In this document: piece after piece, positions 9,471-19,612 of the stretch
Layout: every line of letters begins with the position of its first letter
How positions within the stretch are numbered: the stretch's first letter is position 1
Assembly (NCBI GenBank): GCA_029263175.1
Contig: JAJCXZ010000063.1
Span: forward strand, 1-64,000
DNA: 64,000 nt
Origin: Acidimicrobiales bacterium
GTDB lineage: Bacteria; Actinomycetota; Acidimicrobiia; Acidimicrobiales; Aldehydirespiratoraceae
Direction: 5' to 3'
Made by a program: the position numbers and the translations under genes
Notes under the pieces: generated by a model
What the model saw: only the letters and a program-made list of their open reading frames with translations
Database searches by the model: none
What the model was told of the DNA's origin: nothing

Positions 9471-9506
9471 GTTGAAACGGGGGTCTGACCCCACCGTTTG
9501 AACTCA
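9468..9506. repeat. Stop-supplying palindrome, copy 1 (family A)
   Basis: An inverted repeat fills the convergent junction. The left arm TGAGTTGAAACGG and the complementary right arm TGAGTTCAAACGG flank a GGGGTCTGACCCC-like core. The TGA stops of both genes (9468-9470 and 9504-9506) are the first bases of the two arms. It probably terminates both transcripts. It shares its arm sequence AGTTCAAACGG with the palindrome at 41993-42036. Confidence 0.85.
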
Positions 9507-10112
9507 GCTCCAGGATTCGGGGTCGGCGGGGTCGCCGAAGAGTTCGATGTTGTTGAACGCCGGATCGGGTTCGATGCTGGCGCCGGCGGGCCAGATGCCT
9601 GCCGCGGTGGCGACCTCGTGGCGAGCACCGCCGGTCCCCCACTGAACGAATCCGAGGATGGCGTCCGGGTTGGTGAAGTCACGGGCGGTGTAGAGCGCCG
9701 CCTCTCCACCGGCGGCGTTCAGGCCGCCCATGGTGGCAGCGTCGACCTGGGCGGTTGCGCCGGCTGCGACTGTGCCACCGGCAATCACTTCACCGAGATC
9801 GACGTAGGTCGGGAACTGGCAGAGGATGATCCCGTCGAGCGACGCGTCGCTGTCTCCGTTGTTGATGATCTGCACGAAGCCGGCATCACCGAACTCGACC
9901 AGATTGATCTGGATATCAGGAATCTCCGTCGCCGCTTCGGGGATGGTGACCGTGGTGGTCGGAGCGGTCGTGCCCGGTTCATCGACAACGGTGTCGGTCT
10001 GTGCCGTGCCGGAATCACCAGCAGGGAGCGACTCCCCCTCGTCTCCACCGCAGGCCGCTGCCATCAGCGCCACCAAGAGCACCAGGGGTATCAGTCGTAG
10101 CATTCGACGCAT
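9504..10112 (-). CDS. Secreted lipoprotein with a lamin-tail-like domain
   Basis: 202 residues. A signal peptide ends in a lipobox (LMAAAC, Cys 21), followed by a Thr-rich linker. Residues about 65-200 read like a small beta-sandwich of the lamin-tail type (VEFGDAGFVQIINNGDSDASLDGI, then LGEVIAGGTVAAGATAQVD). Such domains occur in secreted actinobacterial proteins with unclear roles, probably binding or anchoring. A good ribosome site (GGAGAAAGATCC) precedes the ATG. The lipoprotein call is firm; the domain call is tentative. Confidence 0.75.
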   Translation of the reverse strand: MRRMLRLIPLVLLVALMAAACGGDEGESLPAGDSGTAQTDTVVDEPGTTAPTTTVTIPEAATEIPDIQINLVEFGDAGFVQIINNGDSDASLDGIILCQFPTYVDLGEVIAGGTVAAGATAQVDAATMGGLNAAGGEAALYTARDFTNPDAILGFVQWGTGGARHEVATAAGIWPAGASIEPDPAFNNIELFGDPADPESWS

Positions 10113-10434: not shown

Positions 10435-13400
10435 TTAGGCATCGACTTCGCCCGGATCGACCGCGTCAGGCTCTGCCGCCGGCGTCAGATCGACCTCGGC
10501 CAGCAGGGCGGCAATCTGATCCTCGAGCGTCGCTGCCTCGACCCGGTTGGGTGGGTCCTCGGCCAATGCCGCGTCACGAGATGCAAACAACCGCGCAATC
10601 TCAGCAAGGATCGCCTCCGGGGTGACAGGACCGGAGTCGTCTGGCGTTTCGTCCGGGTCGGGTTCCTCGGCCACATCATCGTCGTCGACCACACCGGTGG
10701 GCGTCGCCCCAAGAATGTCGCTGAAGTCGGCGCCGTCGAACATCTGGCTCAACGCATCACCAAGGTTCTCGCCGATGGCGATCTGCTCCCCTTCGCCGAT
10801 TGTGACGATGACAGCCTCGAGCGTGGGAACCGAGGAGGTGCCCTCGGCCGCGACATACAGCGGCCGGACCCAAAGAATCGACTCTGCGATCGGCAGGAGG
10901 ACCAGGTCACCAAACTCAACTTGTGAACCCGAGTCGTCGAGCAGGGTGAGCCGACTCGAGATCTCCTCGTTCTGTGCAATCCCCGACGCGACCAACACCG
11001 GTCCAGGAGCGTCAGCCGACGTCATCTCGTAGCTCACCAAACGCGACGTGCCGTCGGGTCTCGTTTCACCGATCATGAACGCCTCGAGCTCGCGACGGTT
11101 GTCGTTCTCGTCGAACGGCACAAAAGTACGCATCGTGACGAAGCTCGGCTCGTCCTCACCGGGCAGCTCCAAGAGCGTGTAGTAAGGGTCGACTCGACGC
11201 TCGCGGCTCGTGGAGAGCCCCGTGTCCTCATCAGTCACCAGCTCGCTGGTGGAACCAGCGATGACCTGGCGACCCGGGTTCTGGGCGACGGCCCAGTCCT
11301 CACTGCCAACGATCAGGCTGACCGGATCGTCGACCTGGTAGCGGGCCCACATGTTGGTCTGAATCCGGAACAGGTCCTGCGGGTATCGCAGGTTGTCGCG
11401 CAACTCCTCGGGCATCTCATCGAATTCAGTGAAAAGATCGGGGAACGCCGACCGCCAGGCATCGATGATCGGGTCGTCGACGGGCATGACATAGAAGGTG
11501 ACGTCGCCGTCATAGGCATCAACGACCGCCTTCACGGAGTTGCGCACATAGTTGAAACGAGCACCATCCAGGTCGCCCTGAACCATGCCGCTGGCATCGG
11601 CGCGTTGAGAGTAGGGGAAGCGATCCGACGTGGTGAACGCGTCGATCACGTAGTGAATCCGACCATCGACCACCACTGGGTAAGCGTCGGCGTCGAACTC
11701 GAGGAACGGTGCGAGTTCCTCCACCCGCTGATGGACATCGCGGTTGTAGATCACCCTTGTCTCGTCGGTGACAAAGTTCGAGATCAGGGGCTCGATTTGC
11801 CCGAAGCGCATTGCGAAGGCAGCGCGGCGGAAGAAGGAACCGAGTTCGACACCGCTCTCGCCCTCATACCTCGTGAGCACGTTTTCGCTGGTGACGCTGT
11901 CGACGTAGTCGATCTCGTCGACGCTGGCGCCGACAAGCGCATACCCGTCGAGGCCTTCGCCGTGATACACCTGCGGCGTCTCGAGCCCAAGGTCGATACT
12001 GCTGTCGGTCGTCAGCGGAATGTCGCCGACCAAGAAGTTGGGTCGTCCCTCTCCCGTGGTGGCATTGGCCTGGGCGAGCGCAATGCCGTAGCCGTGAGTG
12101 AGCCGAACGTGTTCACGTTCCCAACTCAGGTCCGTGAGGTTGAGTTCGCGCACGCCAAGGACCACCTGAGTCACCTGGCCCTCAACGAGGTACCGATCGG
12201 TATCGAGGGTCTGCTCGTAGTCAGAAAGGCCGGCCCGCTGCTCGAGAAAAGCGAGGCTGCCCTTGAATGCGTAGAACTCCCGCTCGGCCTGGAAGCGCTC
12301 AAACGTGGGGTGGCTCACGAGCGGATCGAGGACGCGGGCGTTGCGTACCGTGTCCGCGTGCTCACGAATCTCCGCCTCGGTGAGATCTTCGGTGTAGTCA
12401 TAGGCCGCTTCTGTGAGGTCTACGCCCGGCTCCAACCCGAAGGCATCGCGGGTGGCAGCGATGTTTCGTTCGGTGAACTCGGCCTCACGGGTGGTCTCGT
12501 TGGGTTCCACCTGGAAGCGCTGCACGAAGGCCGGATAGATACCACCCATCACGATCGCGGTGAACGACCACAGGCCGACGGCCAGGATCGGCATGACCCA
12601 ACCACGCAGCCGCAGGTTGATGACAAGGAGCACCACCGCACACAACGAGATGGCGATCAGCAGGTAGGTGGCCGGCAACTGGGCGTTGATGTCGGTGTAC
12701 AAGGCACCGTCGACAACCCCTCGTGTCGAGACCGTGAGTTCGTAGCGACCCAACCAGTAGTCGGCCGCCTTCACGAGAGCGAGCACGGCGAGAATCGCGC
12801 TGAGGTGGACCTTGACATGCGACGTCACCCGGTCGGCCCCGATCACCGCCAATCGGATTCCACCGTTGAGGTAGTGAGCGATGGCCGTGAGGATGAAGAC
12901 GATGACGATTGCAGCGAATGCCCAGTCGACCACGAAGCTGAGGACCGGCAGCTGGAAAACGTAGAACCCGATGTCTTGGTTGAACTGGGGGTCGTTGACG
13001 CCGAAGTCCTGGCGGTTGACGAACAGCAGCCATTCTTCCCAGCGACTGCCGACACCAGCGGAGGCAATGAGCGCAAAGAGCACCGAGACACCCACCCGGA
13101 TGAGTCCGGTGCGGCCGGCGGTGACATCGTGATACCGGGCGAGCATCTCCTCTTCGGGACCGGGGGTACGAAGCTCGGGGGCGCCGCGATCAGCGATGAA
13201 GAGATTGCCGAACATGAGCACGAAGAACGTGCCGGCAAAGATCAGCGTGAGTGCGATCTTGGCGCCGAGCACGCTCGTGAACACATCGGTGCGGTCGAGC
13301 GAGTCGAACCACAGGTAATCGGTGTAGAAGCCCGCGATCCCCCGAAGGGAGAGAGCGAACACGACAAAGGCCGCGATCAGAATTGCGAAGAGAACTCGGC

Positions 13401-13455
13401 TTCGCCCTCCGAATCGGGATTGCCGGGATGGGGGCAGATCTTCAACACGACGCAT
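10435..13455 (-). CDS. UPF0182 family large membrane protein
   Basis: 1006 residues. The N-terminal third has about seven hydrophobic segments (for example VLFAILIAAFVVFALSLRGI, ALTLIFAGTFFVLMF, VMPILAVGLWSFTAIVMGGI). A large extracytoplasmic region with the conserved UPF0182 stretch YDYTEDLTEAEIREHADTVR and the block around HLTHGYG-like residues follows. The C-terminus is acidic and Pro-rich. UPF0182 proteins are widespread in actinobacteria and cyanobacteria and have no firmly assigned function. Length and layout are normal for the family. It stands 59 bp downstream of the DivIVA-like gene. Confidence 0.9.
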   Translation of the reverse strand: MRRVEDLPPSRQSRFGGRSRVLFAILIAAFVVFALSLRGIAGFYTDYLWFDSLDRTDVFTSVLGAKIALTLIFAGTFFVLMFGNLFIADRGAPELRTPGPEEEMLARYHDVTAGRTGLIRVGVSVLFALIASAGVGSRWEEWLLFVNRQDFGVNDPQFNQDIGFYVFQLPVLSFVVDWAFAAIVIVFILTAIAHYLNGGIRLAVIGADRVTSHVKVHLSAILAVLALVKAADYWLGRYELTVSTRGVVDGALYTDINAQLPATYLLIAISLCAVVLLVINLRLRGWVMPILAVGLWSFTAIVMGGIYPAFVQRFQVEPNETTREAEFTERNIAATRDAFGLEPGVDLTEAAYDYTEDLTEAEIREHADTVRNARVLDPLVSHPTFERFQAEREFYAFKGSLAFLEQRAGLSDYEQTLDTDRYLVEGQVTQVVLGVRELNLTDLSWEREHVRLTHGYGIALAQANATTGEGRPNFLVGDIPLTTDSSIDLGLETPQVYHGEGLDGYALVGASVDEIDYVDSVTSENVLTRYEGESGVELGSFFRRAAFAMRFGQIEPLISNFVTDETRVIYNRDVHQRVEELAPFLEFDADAYPVVVDGRIHYVIDAFTTSDRFPYSQRADASGMVQGDLDGARFNYVRNSVKAVVDAYDGDVTFYVMPVDDPIIDAWRSAFPDLFTEFDEMPEELRDNLRYPQDLFRIQTNMWARYQVDDPVSLIVGSEDWAVAQNPGRQVIAGSTSELVTDEDTGLSTSRERRVDPYYTLLELPGEDEPSFVTMRTFVPFDENDNRRELEAFMIGETRPDGTSRLVSYEMTSADAPGPVLVASGIAQNEEISSRLTLLDDSGSQVEFGDLVLLPIAESILWVRPLYVAAEGTSSVPTLEAVIVTIGEGEQIAIGENLGDALSQMFDGADFSDILGATPTGVVDDDDVAEEPDPDETPDDSGPVTPEAILAEIARLFASRDAALAEDPPNRVEAATLEDQIAALLAEVDLTPAAEPDAVDPGEVDA

Positions 13456-13514: not shown

Positions 13515-15227
13515 TCAGTCAGTTGCTACGAGGTGACATGTGCACGCCGGATGTGCCGGCGGATGCGAGTGGCCGGTTGGGAACGACTGGCCCGCATCGA
13601 CGGGTCCCTGCAACTCGTTGTCGGCGCAGTCGGGACCGCACGAACTATCGGGAGCGCACACCCAGCGCACCTGGCCCGAAGCGCCGGCGATGACGATGAT
13701 GCCGTGCGCCGCGGAGACGGCGGCGTCGGCGGCCTCCTGCACTCTGCGGCTGCGGGACTCTCGGTACAGGCCCCGGACGGTGTCGGAGAGTTCGTCAGAG
13801 TCGTCGGTGGATTCGGCGACCTCGCGGAGGCGCTGATGAACAGGCTGGACGATGATGGCGTCGACCAGTTCCAGCGCCGCGTCGAGATCAATTCCGATGG
13901 GGGCGCCAAGCTCAGCGGCGAGATCGAGGAGCACCGGTCGGACGGCATCGTCGTAGGGCACGCGGACACCTTCGGCGTCGACCACCGGACTGATTGCTTC
14001 GGCACCGCTTCTCCGCACGCCATCGAGCAGCGTGCCCTGTTCGTCGACCACGACCTTCTTCAATGCACGGGTCGCCGAAATGCCCGCCTTGCGCACCGCT
14101 ATCACCGCGTGATCGTCCCGCTCAACCTCGGGTTCGGGTTCCGGTTCGGGTTCCGGTTCGGGCTCCGCCCGGTCGGAGACCTGGTCATCGTCGTGCGCCT
14201 CACGAAGCTTGGCGAAGATGTCGGCCTCGGGAGAGGGCTCCGAATCAGTGTCTACCGCGACCGCTTCTTCCTCGACCACGTCTTCCTCGACCACGTCTTC
14301 CTCGACTGCGTCCTCCTCGGCCTCGCCATCGAACACTTCTGGCTCGTCTTGGGCCTCAGGTTCGGGCGCTGGCTCGCGTTCGGGCGCATCGACCGCGTCC
14401 AACGCCAGATCGACGTGGGTGAGCGCTTCCATCTCGCCGGTGATGAACACCTCATCGTCGCTCGGCTCAGGGAGATCCTCGACCAGCGGGTGACCGACGA
14501 GACGCGCAGCCTCGATCTCGGCCTCGAGCTGCTCGGGGGTGAGTTCCGGCTCTGCCTTGATTCGCATCCCGGCACGCTGCGCCGCGGCTCGGGCATCGGG
14601 CACCGCTTCAACGAGGTCGGCTATCGCGGTGTCGAGACTGTCCTGGACGACCGACAATGAGTCGAGCAGACGATCCCGGCCGGCACGCAGCTGTTCGACC
14701 TGAGCGCGTCCCGTCTGACGCTTGCGGGCGAGGTCTCGCAGCATTCGCTCCCTCACACCTTGTGCCTCACCAACCATGTCGCGCCCACGGACACGTGCCT
14801 CTTCAACGAGTTCTTCGGCTTCCCGCTGCGCACCCGCGATGATTTCCAGCCGCTGCTGTTGACCTTCGGCGCGCAGGGCGTCGGCCGCCGCAATCGCCTC
14901 GGCCCGAACTGCCTCGGCCTCACGATTCGCCCGTTCTCCGCGGTCAGAGGCGGCGCCGTGGGCGGCCTCCAGAACCTGCGTGGCTTCTACACCAAGTGCC
15001 TCCGCAACGCGACGGGCTTCGAGCCGGTCATCGGGCAGATCCTCGACGATGGCATCCTTCTCGGCCAAGCGGCCTTCCAGTTCGTCGCGGAGACGTTGCA
15101 GCCGCCGAATCTCGGCAGCGGCGGAACGCAGGCTCGATTGCACCGCAGCGGGGTCGAATCCGCGACGGACTGTGGCAAACGACGCCTGCTCTAGGGCTGC
15201 GGGATCGACCTGATCTTCTGACGACAT
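13515..15227 (-). CDS. DivIVA-like coiled-coil protein with phage Mu F/SPP1 gp7-like C-terminus
   Basis: 570 residues. Residues 15-45 (FATVRRGFDPAAVQSSLRS) match the N-terminal membrane-binding motif of DivIVA/Wag31 polar scaffold proteins. A long Glu/Arg/Ala-rich coiled coil (about 30-230) follows, then an acidic low-complexity segment (about 240-360) with EDVVE repeats and an (EP)n run. The C-terminal 190 residues end in CGPDCADNELQGP, GQSFPTGHSHPP and AHPACTCHL, a Cys/His pattern like that of phage Mu F/SPP1 gp7 minor head proteins. A role in pole or septum organisation is inferred from the N-terminus only. Confidence 0.7.
   Translation of the reverse strand: MSSEDQVDPAALEQASFATVRRGFDPAAVQSSLRSAAAEIRRLQRLRDELEGRLAEKDAIVEDLPDDRLEARRVAEALGVEATQVLEAAHGAASDRGERANREAEAVRAEAIAAADALRAEGQQQRLEIIAGAQREAEELVEEARVRGRDMVGEAQGVRERMLRDLARKRQTGRAQVEQLRAGRDRLLDSLSVVQDSLDTAIADLVEAVPDARAAAQRAGMRIKAEPELTPEQLEAEIEAARLVGHPLVEDLPEPSDDEVFITGEMEALTHVDLALDAVDAPEREPAPEPEAQDEPEVFDGEAEEDAVEEDVVEEDVVEEEAVAVDTDSEPSPEADIFAKLREAHDDDQVSDRAEPEPEPEPEPEPEVERDDHAVIAVRKAGISATRALKKVVVDEQGTLLDGVRRSGAEAISPVVDAEGVRVPYDDAVRPVLLDLAAELGAPIGIDLDAALELVDAIIVQPVHQRLREVAESTDDSDELSDTVRGLYRESRSRRVQEAADAAVSAAHGIIVIAGASGQVRWVCAPDSSCGPDCADNELQGPVDAGQSFPTGHSHPPAHPACTCHLVATD
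14127..14310. repeat. In-frame low-complexity repeats inside the DivIVA-like gene
   Basis: Three 15-bp tandem copies (TCTTCCTCGACCACG, 14266-14310, the last with two changes) encode the EDVVE units. A hexanucleotide-type GGTTCC/GGTTCG array near 14127-14165 encodes the Glu-Pro run. Such arrays may vary in copy number by slippage. Confidence 0.75.
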
Positions 15228-15278: not shown

Positions 15279-16448
15279 TCAGGAGGCAGGAGTGCCCAAA
15301 TCGGACAGTTCCAGCGCCAGCTCGGAGGTCTCACCACCGAGATCGGCCAGCGCCACCAGGGCTTCCTCCAGAGTCGCGACACCGATGACGGGCATGCCCC
15401 CGGCGTGTTCTGTCGCTGTCTCGACCAGATCGGCAGGAACGATGAACAAGTCGGCGCCTTCGCCCGATGCGGCCGCAGCCTTCTGCCCCACGCCGCCGAT
15501 GTTTCCGACCGATCCGCCAGCGGTGATGGTGCCGGTAACCGCCACGCGGTTGCCGCCCGTCAACTCGCCCTCGGTCAACAGGTCGATCAACGTCAAGGTG
15601 AAGGCGAGTCCGGCGGACGGACCACCGATCGAGCCGGAATCGATCTCGATCTCGAACGGGAGGTCGACGTCGACAGCCCGAACCTCAGGACCTTCGATCC
15701 CGATGAACGCAGCATCCGCGGCGTCGGGGCGCTCTCCATAGACGACCTCCACCGTACGAATCGCGCCTGTCTCGTGATGCTCGACGGTAAACGTCGCAGT
15801 CTGTCCGGGCGCACTGGCATCGAGCACCGCTCGTAGCGACTCGAAGTCGGTGATCAGGGAGTCGTCGATCACGATGATCACGTCACCGATCTCGAGGATC
15901 CCGTCGACCGGGCCATTCTCGACCACTGCGTTGAACCCAACCCCGGTGGCCTCGATGGCTTCCACGCCAAGGGCTCCGAGCGCAGCAACGATTGCCGAGT
16001 CCTTGGAAGCCTGCATCAACTCGAGGTTTCGTGTGCGCTGCTCGGTCGCGGTACGGGTGCCGAAGACCTCTTCTCGGCTGCGGAGTTCGATGTCGTCGCT
16101 CAGTGCCGACATCGCCCAGTCCCAGACCGTGACCTGACTGTCGATTGACACGGTGGTGAATAGCACTTCGCCGTCGGACCCGTACACCGGCAAGTCGATG
16201 ATGGTGACGCGAGATTCGGTCGGGCGGGCTGATCCAGGCTTCAACGCCACGCTGCCGTCATCGACGATCGAATGGCCGGGTACCACTCGTCCCAGCCACT
16301 GTGCCGGCACCAGGGTGGCCCCGATCACGAGCGCAACAAGCACCCCGACGACCACGAGCAATCCCTGGTAGAACCGATCGTGCCACCACCGCGCTGACGA
16401 AAGGGCACCGGGCTGTAGCATTTCGCTCGGCGTGTCGAACTCACTCAT
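15279..16448 (-). CDS. Membrane PDZ/Lon-like serine protease (YlbL family)
   Basis: 389 residues from the ATG at 16448 (MSEFDTPSEMLQ). One transmembrane helix (about 33-53) is followed by a PDZ domain (ATGVGFNAVVENGPVDGILEIGDVIIVID) and a Lon-type proteolytic domain. That domain has the catalytic Ser in GGPSAGLAF and the Lys in GGVGQKAAAA. This PDZ plus S16 layout is the YlbL family of cell-envelope proteases. Active-site residues are intact. It lies 51 bp upstream of the DivIVA-like gene on the same strand and is divergent from a small membrane protein gene. Confidence 0.9.
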   Translation of the reverse strand: MSEFDTPSEMLQPGALSSARWWHDRFYQGLLVVVGVLVALVIGATLVPAQWLGRVVPGHSIVDDGSVALKPGSARPTESRVTIIDLPVYGSDGEVLFTTVSIDSQVTVWDWAMSALSDDIELRSREEVFGTRTATEQRTRNLELMQASKDSAIVAALGALGVEAIEATGVGFNAVVENGPVDGILEIGDVIIVIDDSLITDFESLRAVLDASAPGQTATFTVEHHETGAIRTVEVVYGERPDAADAAFIGIEGPEVRAVDVDLPFEIEIDSGSIGGPSAGLAFTLTLIDLLTEGELTGGNRVAVTGTITAGGSVGNIGGVGQKAAAASGEGADLFIVPADLVETATEHAGGMPVIGVATLEEALVALADLGGETSELALELSDLGTPAS

Positions 16449-16638
16449 TGTCTGGATGCTCGTCCTAGGGGCGGGGTTGATGATCAGCACAGGGCCGCGC
16501 GTGCGACTTCAGCCTGCCACGGTAGTGGCGGCTATCGGTCGCAGGCTCACGGCAAGCACCCGTGGCCGGCCCCGGGCGCAGCTTCATATCCAGACCCGGT
16601 TCGACAACTACTCCAACGACAGTGACACCAACATCGTC

Positions 16639-18601: not shown

Positions 18602-19612
18602 TCATCGGCGCGATCTGCCGTCCATGAACATGGCCTGGACGGACTCATAGTGTTCGATCACCTTGCCGGCCCCAAGGACGACCGCCTCCAGCGGCGCCTT
18701 CACCAGCCGAACCTGCACATCTGATTCTTGCGACAGCCGCTTGTCCATCCCTTTCAACATCCCACCGCCACCGACCAGATGGATCCCTTGCACGATCAGG
18801 TCTTGGGCGAGCTCGGGCGGGGCCTGAGCCAGGCAACTCAGCACCGAGTCGACCATTGCTGCAACCGGCTCCTCGATGGCAGTCCGGATCTCCTCGGGGG
18901 TCAAGATCACCGTCTTCGGGAGGCCACTCATCAGTTCGCGGCCGCGGACCTCAGCGGAGACTTCGTCGTCGGTCGCCGCCGCCGACCCGAGCACGATCTT
19001 GATCTCTTCAGCAGTGCGCTCACCAACAGCGATGCCGTACTCGCGGCGCACGAAACCCTGAATGGAGTTGTCGATGTCGAAGGATCCGACCCGTACGGCT
19101 TCCAGCGCCACCACACCACCAAGCGATATCAACGCCGACTCCGTGGTGCCGCCGCCGATGTCGACCACCATGTTGCCCATCGGTTCGTTGATCGGAAGCT
19201 CAACACCGATAGCTGCGGCGACCGGCTGCTCGATCAGCCGCGCATCGGCCGCGCCGGCGCGCTTGGCTGCCTCGGTCACTGCCCGTCGTTCGACCGCGGT
19301 GATGGCGGACGGAACACAGATCACAACCCGGGGCCGATTCAGCCTGCTCACGCCGACCCGCTGCAGGAGCAGGCGAATCATGCGTTGGGTCACCTCGAAG
19401 TCGGTGATCGCTCCCTTGCGCAGGGGACGAACGGCAACGATGTACGACGGCGTACGGCCGATCATCTGCCACGCCTCGTGACCCATCGCAAGAACTTCGC
19501 CACTCCGACTATTGAGCGCGATGACTGACGGCTCGTTCAGGACAATGCCCTCACCTCGGGCGTAGACCAATGTGTTGGCCGTGCCGAGATCGATCGCAAG
19601 GTCGCGTGCCAG
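18602..19612 (-). CDS. mreB: MreB/Mbl actin-like protein, CTG start
   Basis: 336 residues. The actin-family motifs are complete: phosphate-1 loop DLAIDLGTANTLVYAR, phosphate-2 DIGGGTTESALI, and the nucleotide-binding GGGGMLKGMDK. MreB polymerises under the membrane and guides lateral wall synthesis. No ATG, GTG or TTG exists before the first motif; using the first TTG (19570) would delete the conserved DLGTANT loop. The CTG at 19612, read LARDLAIDLG, lies 8 nt after AGGAG and 2 nt after the stop of the upstream small gene, so coupled initiation at CTG is the best explanation. mreC and mreD are not adjacent. Confidence 0.9.
   Translation of the reverse strand: MARDLAIDLGTANTLVYARGEGIVLNEPSVIALNSRSGEVLAMGHEAWQMIGRTPSYIVAVRPLRKGAITDFEVTQRMIRLLLQRVGVSRLNRPRVVICVPSAITAVERRAVTEAAKRAGAADARLIEQPVAAAIGVELPINEPMGNMVVDIGGGTTESALISLGGVVALEAVRVGSFDIDNSIQGFVRREYGIAVGERTAEEIKIVLGSAAATDDEVSAEVRGRELMSGLPKTVILTPEEIRTAIEEPVAAMVDSVLSCLAQAPPELAQDLIVQGIHLVGGGGMLKGMDKRLSQESDVQVRLVKAPLEAVVLGAGKVIEHYESVQAMFMDGRSRR

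What the first reader, a model, noticed from the sequence alone, without database searches (positions are those of the whole stretch)
13515..15227. DivIVA-like polar scaffold fused to a phage head-protein-like C-terminus
The N-terminus has the DivIVA RRGFDPxxV motif and a long coiled coil. The C-terminus has the CxxDC...HPPAHPACTC pattern known from phage Mu F/SPP1 gp7 minor capsid proteins. I know of no described function for such a fusion; it might be a domesticated phage domain working at the cell pole or a toxin-like tip.
Basis: partly seen in the sequence, partly recalled or inferred. Interest (0 to 1): 0.6.

Follow-up and report, generated by a model that had tools for sequence, protein, structure and literature searches.

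The report
Cell-scaffold protein with domesticated phage domain
A bacterial scaffold protein of the DivIVA kind, which normally marks cell poles and division sites, carries at its tail a domain descended from a phage head protein, and the fusion has been kept as a normal chromosomal gene across an entire class of bacteria, so a virus part appears to have been adopted into the cell's growth or division machinery.

Summary
The 570-aa minus-strand gene at 13515-15227 encodes an N-terminal DivIVA-type motif, a ~160-residue helix, a very acidic linker and a compact C-terminal module (aa ~370-570) homologous to phage MuF/SPP1-gp7 minor head proteins: hhalign probability 99%, E 2.8e-18 against nine phage proteins; a phage-only profile finds this gene and nothing else in its genome; Foldseek's named viral matches are overwhelmingly head-morphogenesis proteins. 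It is not a prophage remnant. The module is present in 130 of 198 genomes of the class (Acidimicrobiia, inferred from record titles), nearly always once, and in 16 genomes of other classes, usually between a YlbL-like PDZ-Lon protease gene and a UPF0182 gene, with mreB nearby, under purifying selection. A separate canonical DivIVA gene lies beside sepF elsewhere. The phage-type Cys tail was lost repeatedly while the rest stayed. Best reading: an ancient domesticated phage head domain, displayed in many copies on a DivIVA-like membrane scaffold as a partner-docking head for envelope growth. Identity is near certain; location, partner and function are inferred. The toxin-tip idea is not supported. 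In the open papers searched I found no description of a DivIVA-MuF fusion.

The parts
13515..15227 (-). whole gene: DivIVA-type N-terminus, coiled coil, acidic linker, MuF-like C-terminus (570 aa)
   Evidence: homologues in 60 of 61 genomes searched, own included
15042..15194 (-). DivIVA-type N-terminal segment, aa 12-62, with FATVRRGFDPAAV
   Evidence: PF05103 25.5 bits, E 1.4e-5; orthologues mostly over the PF05103 and TIGR03544 cut-offs; F17, G23, V29 invariant
14553..15032 (-). long helix, presumed coiled coil, aa 66-225
   Evidence: AlphaFold2 model of the full protein, helix 66-225; lowest dN/dS of all segments, 0.04
14121..14552 (-). acidic, mostly low-confidence linker, aa 226-369 (net charge -48 over aa 236-374)
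   Evidence: charge count; pLDDT mostly 35-63 from aa 241 to 370
14202..14225 (-). conserved short linear motif ADIFAKLR inside the linker, aa 335-342
   Evidence: F338, A339 and R342 at least 90% conserved in 33 homologues; similar motif in homologues that lost the MuF part
13683..14120 (-). helical part of the MuF-like module, aa 370-515 (DEQ and YRE motifs)
   Evidence: model pLDDT 96.3, pTM 0.91 for the module; the second half aligns with phage MuF proteins
13536..13673 (-). Cys/Pro-rich MuF tail, aa 519-564 (W..CxxDC..DN.L.G..FPTG..PPAH..C.C)
   Evidence: dN/dS about 0.07, but dS is saturated
15279..16490 (-). neighbour 5': YlbL-like protein with PDZ and Lon-type protease domains
   Evidence: PF13180, PF05362; synteny
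10435..13455 (-). neighbour 3': UPF0182 protein
   Evidence: PF03699 E 8e-234; next recognised same-strand gene in all 56 loci where the module was found
18602..19570 (-). MreB/Mbl gene in the same conserved cluster
   Evidence: PF06723 E 1.1e-113; synteny

Best explanation
It is a second, non-canonical DivIVA-family scaffold that carries a domesticated phage MuF (minor head protein) module. Mechanism, inferred: the N-terminal DivIVA-type segment binds curved membrane at poles or septa and the long helix oligomerises the protein; the acidic linker, with its FAxLR motif, acts as a flexible arm; the MuF module is displayed in many copies as a docking head for an envelope or growth partner. The likeliest partners are the products of the flanking genes (UPF0182, YlbL-like protease) or the MreB machinery. 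[quoted passage not shown] Shown: the architecture, the homology, ancient vertical inheritance (from synteny and distribution), the conserved gene neighbourhood and purifying selection. Inferred: membrane location, oligomeric state, partner and cellular role. Near certain (about 0.95) for the identity; the confidence given below is for the whole statement with its mechanism.
For: hhalign of the module against nine phage MuF proteins: probability 99.0, E 2.8e-18, and 3.9e-18 for the tail part. A phage-only profile hits 48 ORFs among 7144, all 48 being these fusion proteins, and only this gene in the own genome. PHROG portal family 2662 matches 33 of 43 members, best E 9.9e-14. A family-consensus tail finds a Brevundimonas phage portal protein at E 4e-5, otherwise mostly head-morphogenesis proteins. 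Foldseek against viral models: ten matches at E<=1e-3, the named ones including head morphogenesis and minor capsid proteins, query TM up to 0.71. DivIVA domain over cut-off in orthologues. Module in 130 of 198 class genomes and in 16 genomes of other classes. YlbL > fusion > UPF0182 order. 129 of the 130 genomes with the module also have UPF0182. dN/dS 0.08 overall. Canonical DivIVA gene beside sepF elsewhere.
Against: No experiment on location or partner exists here. The window protein alone is below the Pfam cut-offs of both domains. The module, or the whole gene, is absent from several lineages that keep UPF0182, so UPF0182 does not need it. The first ~75 residues of the module are not covered by the phage alignment. 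PDB comparison gave only generic helix bundles.
Confidence: 0.55

Rival explanations
1. The MuF part is a partly decayed relic: only the DivIVA-type coil, linker motif and helical bundle matter, and the phage-type Cys tail is dispensable.
For: Tail presence needs at least 10 changes on the tree, 6 of them forced by well-supported branches. Some proteins keep only the coil, e.g. 409 and 333 aa.
Against: Where present, the tail is among the best-conserved parts, with dN/dS about 0.07 between the two nearest species, and 79 of the 100 proteins in the tree keep it.
Confidence: 0.15
2. Anti-phage decoy: a pole-tethered MuF mimic binds portal proteins of infecting phages and spoils head assembly or entry.
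For: SPP1 gp7 is found in complex with portal proteins (PMC5576092). DivIVA is needed by mycobacteriophage Rosebush to infect (PMC9262239). Prophage-encoded inhibition of virion assembly exists (PMC10884400).
Against: Widespread in the class, nearly always once per genome, fixed beside housekeeping genes and under purifying selection. Defence genes are usually patchy and linked to mobile elements (general knowledge).
Confidence: 0.1
3. Chromosome tether: the MuF head binds DNA and holds it at the pole, as RacA does with DivIVA in Bacillus.
For: The minor capsid protein gp44 of phage 80alpha binds DNA non-specifically (PMC7290940).
Against: The module is acidic in all 43 aligned members, mean net charge -9, and the linker is strongly acidic.
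Confidence: 0.08
4. No homology to phage proteins: convergent four-helix bundle plus a Cys/Pro hook.
For: Pfam Phage_Mu_F is below its cut-off for the window protein; PDB matches are generic helix bundles.
Against: The shared order of W, Cys pair, N..AG.V, FPSG, PPAH and CxC over about 100 columns gives hhalign E 3.9e-18, and the reverse search is specific.
Confidence: 0.04
5. Toxin-like tip or MuF polymorphic toxin.
For: MuF domains often carry toxins in phages (PMC5576092).
Against: Nothing follows the MuF module; no phage structural family was matched by the neighbouring genes tested; housekeeping synteny and vertical inheritance.
Confidence: 0.02

Closest known systems
DivIVA / Wag31 (PF05103, TIGR03544, NF050102)
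   Same: N-terminal R-G-F/Y motif followed by a long helix; most orthologues tested pass the PF05103 and TIGR03544 cut-offs
   Different: A separate canonical DivIVA gene lies beside sepF in the same genome; this protein adds a long acidic linker and a phage-type head, and is far below the Wag31 equivalog cut-off
Phage MuF minor head proteins (PF04233, TIGR01641; SPP1 gp7, Mu gpF) and portal proteins with a MuF-like C-terminus (phrog_2662)
   Same: Helices plus Cys/Pro tail; profile, fold and reverse-search matches
   Different: Chromosomal housekeeping context, not next to a portal gene; a DivIVA coil takes the place of the phage parts; below the Pfam cut-off
MuF polymorphic toxins (PMC5576092)
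   Same: A MuF domain in a multidomain bacterial protein
   Different: There the toxin follows MuF and 96% of bacterial muf genes are prophage-linked; here MuF ends the protein
YlbL-UPF0182 gene pair
   Same: The gene sits between these two
   Different: Some lineages lack the fusion gene and have the two genes adjacent

Membership tests
DivIVA family (PF05103 / TIGR03544) | sequence match over the curated cut-off | tested here: inconclusive
   Window protein 25.5 of 28 bits; nine of ten relatives in the same gene family score 33-58 bits, one 24.6; TIGR03544 over cut-off in six of seven relatives tested
DivIVA family (PF05103 / TIGR03544) | N-terminal motif followed by long coiled coil | tested here: met
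   Motif at aa 17-29 invariant in key positions; helix 66-225 predicted
DivIVA family (PF05103 / TIGR03544) | binding to curved membrane at poles or septa, oligomer | not testable with these tools
   needs microscopy and biochemistry
Phage MuF / SPP1 gp7 superfamily | Pfam PF04233 gathering score | tested here: not met
   11 of 29.6 bits; 16 of 43 members match at E<0.1, best 3.2e-5
Phage MuF / SPP1 gp7 superfamily | homology by profile-profile comparison | tested here: met
   probability 99.0, E 2.8e-18
Phage MuF / SPP1 gp7 superfamily | same fold as phage minor head proteins | tested here: met
   Foldseek viral: ten matches E<=1e-3, named ones mainly head or minor capsid proteins; predicted models on both sides, low sequence identity
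Phage MuF / SPP1 gp7 superfamily | gene next to a portal gene or in a prophage | tested here: not met
   Neighbours are YlbL-like, UPF0182, MreB, MoaE; no phage structural family among the neighbouring genes tested
MuF polymorphic toxin | toxin extension of at least 100 aa after MuF | tested here: not met
   protein ends 6 residues after the CTC motif

The most novel reading that the evidence does not exclude
A phage head protein domain was recruited once, before the radiation of Acidimicrobiia and related classes, into a DivIVA-like scaffold and became a standing part of the cell-envelope or division machinery of a large branch of Actinomycetota, working there as a docking head for the UPF0182/YlbL membrane proteins.
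Probability: 0.4. Interest if true: 0.8.

Novelty: new variant of a known kind. Interest (0 to 1): 0.62.

Why it matters
MuF domains are common in tailed phages, yet their function is stated to be unknown, and a 2017 survey found 96% of bacterial muf genes in prophages or remnants (PMC5576092). Here is a long-standing cellular use of the domain, fused to a cell-pole type scaffold, syntenic and under selection. It offers a way to learn what MuF binds outside a virion. It also points to a so far unstudied envelope module, YlbL - DivIVA-MuF - UPF0182, near mreB in little-studied Actinomycetota; the nine held papers that name UPF0182 mention it only once or twice each.

Tried and rejected
Prophage remnant: rejected; no other MuF in the genome, no phage structural match among the neighbouring genes tested, class-wide synteny. 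DNA tether: weakened by the acidic module. ZorA match to the helical part in the PDB by sequence (E 3e-4): put down to coiled-coil make-up around a YRES stretch, not pursued. PDB fold search and VIA-align: only generic four-helix bundles (FAK-FAT, apolipoprotein E, designed bundles), uninformative. IMG/VR scans with the family alignments found no viral relative: their degenerate patterns are specific to this family. Direct tblastn of one member against phages gave only weak hits; the family consensus was needed. Genome-contig scan with the full module failed for lack of conserved stretches; the tail alignment worked. Literature: no paper joining DivIVA with Acidimicrobiia; two that hold both 'DivIVA' and 'minor capsid protein', of which the one I opened does so in unrelated passages.

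Full report
Observation. The ORF 13515-15227 (minus, 570 aa) is as described. RRGFDPAAV is at aa 21-29. The tail W522-V-C-APDSS-C530-GPD-C534-ADNELQG-PVDAGQS-FPTG-HS-HPPAHPACTC564 is at the C-terminus. AlphaFold2 on 33 full-length homologues gives a short helix 9-14, a loop with the RRGF motif, helix 26-62, an unbroken helix 66-225, a mostly low-confidence acidic linker with short helices at 231-243, 264-277 and 333-344, and a confident module 370-570. Modelled alone on 43 sequences, the module reaches mean pLDDT 96.3 and pTM 0.91: four long helices, then a strand, a helix and a strand formed by the Cys/Pro tail.

DivIVA part. The window protein scores 25.5 bits with PF05103, just under the 28-bit cut-off. 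Its relatives score 33-58 bits, with one at 24.6, and six of seven tested pass the TIGR03544 DivIVA-domain cut-off. F17, G23 and V29 are invariant in 33 homologues. The genome has a separate canonical DivIVA (62.8 bits) whose neighbours read as SepF and a YggS-like protein (identified by eye from the translations), so this is a second DivIVA-type protein and not the canonical one.

MuF part. Pfam Phage_Mu_F alone is weak (11 bits; 16 of 43 members match, best E 3.2e-5). Five further tests make the homology clear. (a) phrog_2662, a portal protein whose C-terminal positions 588-706 match, hits 33 of 43 members, best E 9.9e-14. (b) hhalign against nine phage MuF proteins from Brevundimonas, Brevibacillus, Arthrobacter, Microbacterium, Streptomyces and archaeal viruses: probability 99.0, E 2.8e-18 for the module and 3.9e-18 for the tail part; several of those nine were picked through the search in (c), so (b) and (c) are not fully independent. 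(c) The consensus tail finds a Brevundimonas phage portal protein by tblastn at E 4e-5, 34% identity over 97 residues, and otherwise mostly head-morphogenesis, minor head and maturation-protease proteins. (d) Reverse search: the phage-only profile finds this gene and nothing else in the 4.4 Mb genome (E 4.6e-7), and 48 of 7144 ORFs in the neighbourhood loci, all of them these fusions. (e) Foldseek against viral models: the leading named matches are head-morphogenesis and minor capsid proteins, with a few toxin-named multidomain phage proteins; query TM up to 0.71. The phage alignment covers the second half of the helical part and the tail; the first ~75 residues of the module have no sequence support for a phage origin.

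Distribution and context. Homologues occur in 60 of 61 genomes searched among relatives. The module occurs in 130 of 198 class genomes, with one exception as a single match, and in 85 of 104 genera, and in 16 genomes of other classes of the phylum. Record titles of matched contigs (Acidimicrobiales, Acidimicrobiaceae, Ilumatobacteraceae) indicate that the class is Acidimicrobiia. In all 56 loci examined that hold the module, UPF0182 is the next recognised gene downstream on the same strand. In nearly all Acidimicrobiia loci a YlbL-like PDZ-Lon gene is directly upstream, often with HEAT, MreB and MoaE genes beyond it; the window has the same order. Of the 130 genomes with the module, 129 also have UPF0182, against 56 of the 68 without it; relatedness is not corrected for. 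Where the gene is missing, YlbL and UPF0182 are adjacent in five of the loci looked at, including streamlined genomes of about 1.1 Mb.

Loss series. Some genera keep DivIVA, coil, linker and helical bundle but end before the Cys tail; others keep only DivIVA and coil (L242, 409 aa; G047, 333 aa); others have lost the gene. On a tree of the helical part, tail presence needs at least 10 changes, 6 forced by well-supported branches. The tree has few columns, and frameshifts in draft assemblies may inflate the count. A linker motif [DE]D[LIV]FA[KR]LR persists (F338, A339, R342 at least 90%), in similar form also in proteins without the MuF part. Between the two nearest species dN/dS is 0.08 overall, 0.04 in the coil, 0.11 in the helical MuF part and 0.07 in the tail; dS is saturated, so these are rough.

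Interpretation. The most parsimonious history is one ancient phage-to-cell transfer, fused to a DivIVA-type coil upstream of UPF0182 and inherited vertically. The opposite direction is unlikely because MuF is found in about 35% of tailed phages (PMC5576092) and in archaeal viruses. Mechanistically, DivIVA proteins are membrane-curvature scaffolds (established knowledge), so the MuF module would be displayed in many copies in the cytoplasm at poles or septa. [quoted passage not shown] I infer that the domesticated version kept a docking role. The flanking genes name candidate partners: in B. subtilis YlbL is a membrane protease that helps clear the division inhibitor YneA (PMC6051672), and UPF0182 has no assigned function that I found. 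None of this was tested. DNA binding, known for 80alpha gp44 (PMC7290940), is made less likely by the negative charge of the module, mean -9. A decoy against phages cannot be excluded but fits badly with the housekeeping synteny. A toxin is not supported.

Relation to known kinds. It works like, and by its orthologues belongs to, the DivIVA scaffolds. It is a distant homologue of phage MuF proteins, but not a member by Pfam's cut-off or by gene context. In the open-access library I found no description of such a fusion; subscription papers and preprints were not searched.

Noticed in passing
window 14202-14225 (-), aa 335-342: Short linear motif ADIFAKLR in the disordered linker, at least 90% conserved at F, A and R, with similar sequences even in homologues that lost the MuF module; possibly a docking site for an unknown partner.
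   Followed up: partly
window 14397-14438 (-), aa 264-277: Second conserved linker segment (around TGEMEALTHVD) with a predicted short helix.
   Followed up: no
L233 (own genome contig C41): Canonical DivIVA (525-aa open frame) lies next to genes that read as SepF and a YggS-like protein.
   Followed up: partly
G001:C82:13003-13404 and G044:C168:37510-37866: Further phage-type MuF matches in relatives, in 841- and 1107-aa frames, probably prophage or portal-MuF proteins.
   Followed up: no
L010, L011, L013 (genus g3): The open frame stops just before the Cys tail, while the whole-protein search aligns beyond the stop in these genomes, as if the tail were lost recently.
   Followed up: no
window 9504-10112 (-): 202-aa protein with a lipoprotein-like start (LMAAACGG) and no Pfam match at E<=0.001.
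   Followed up: no
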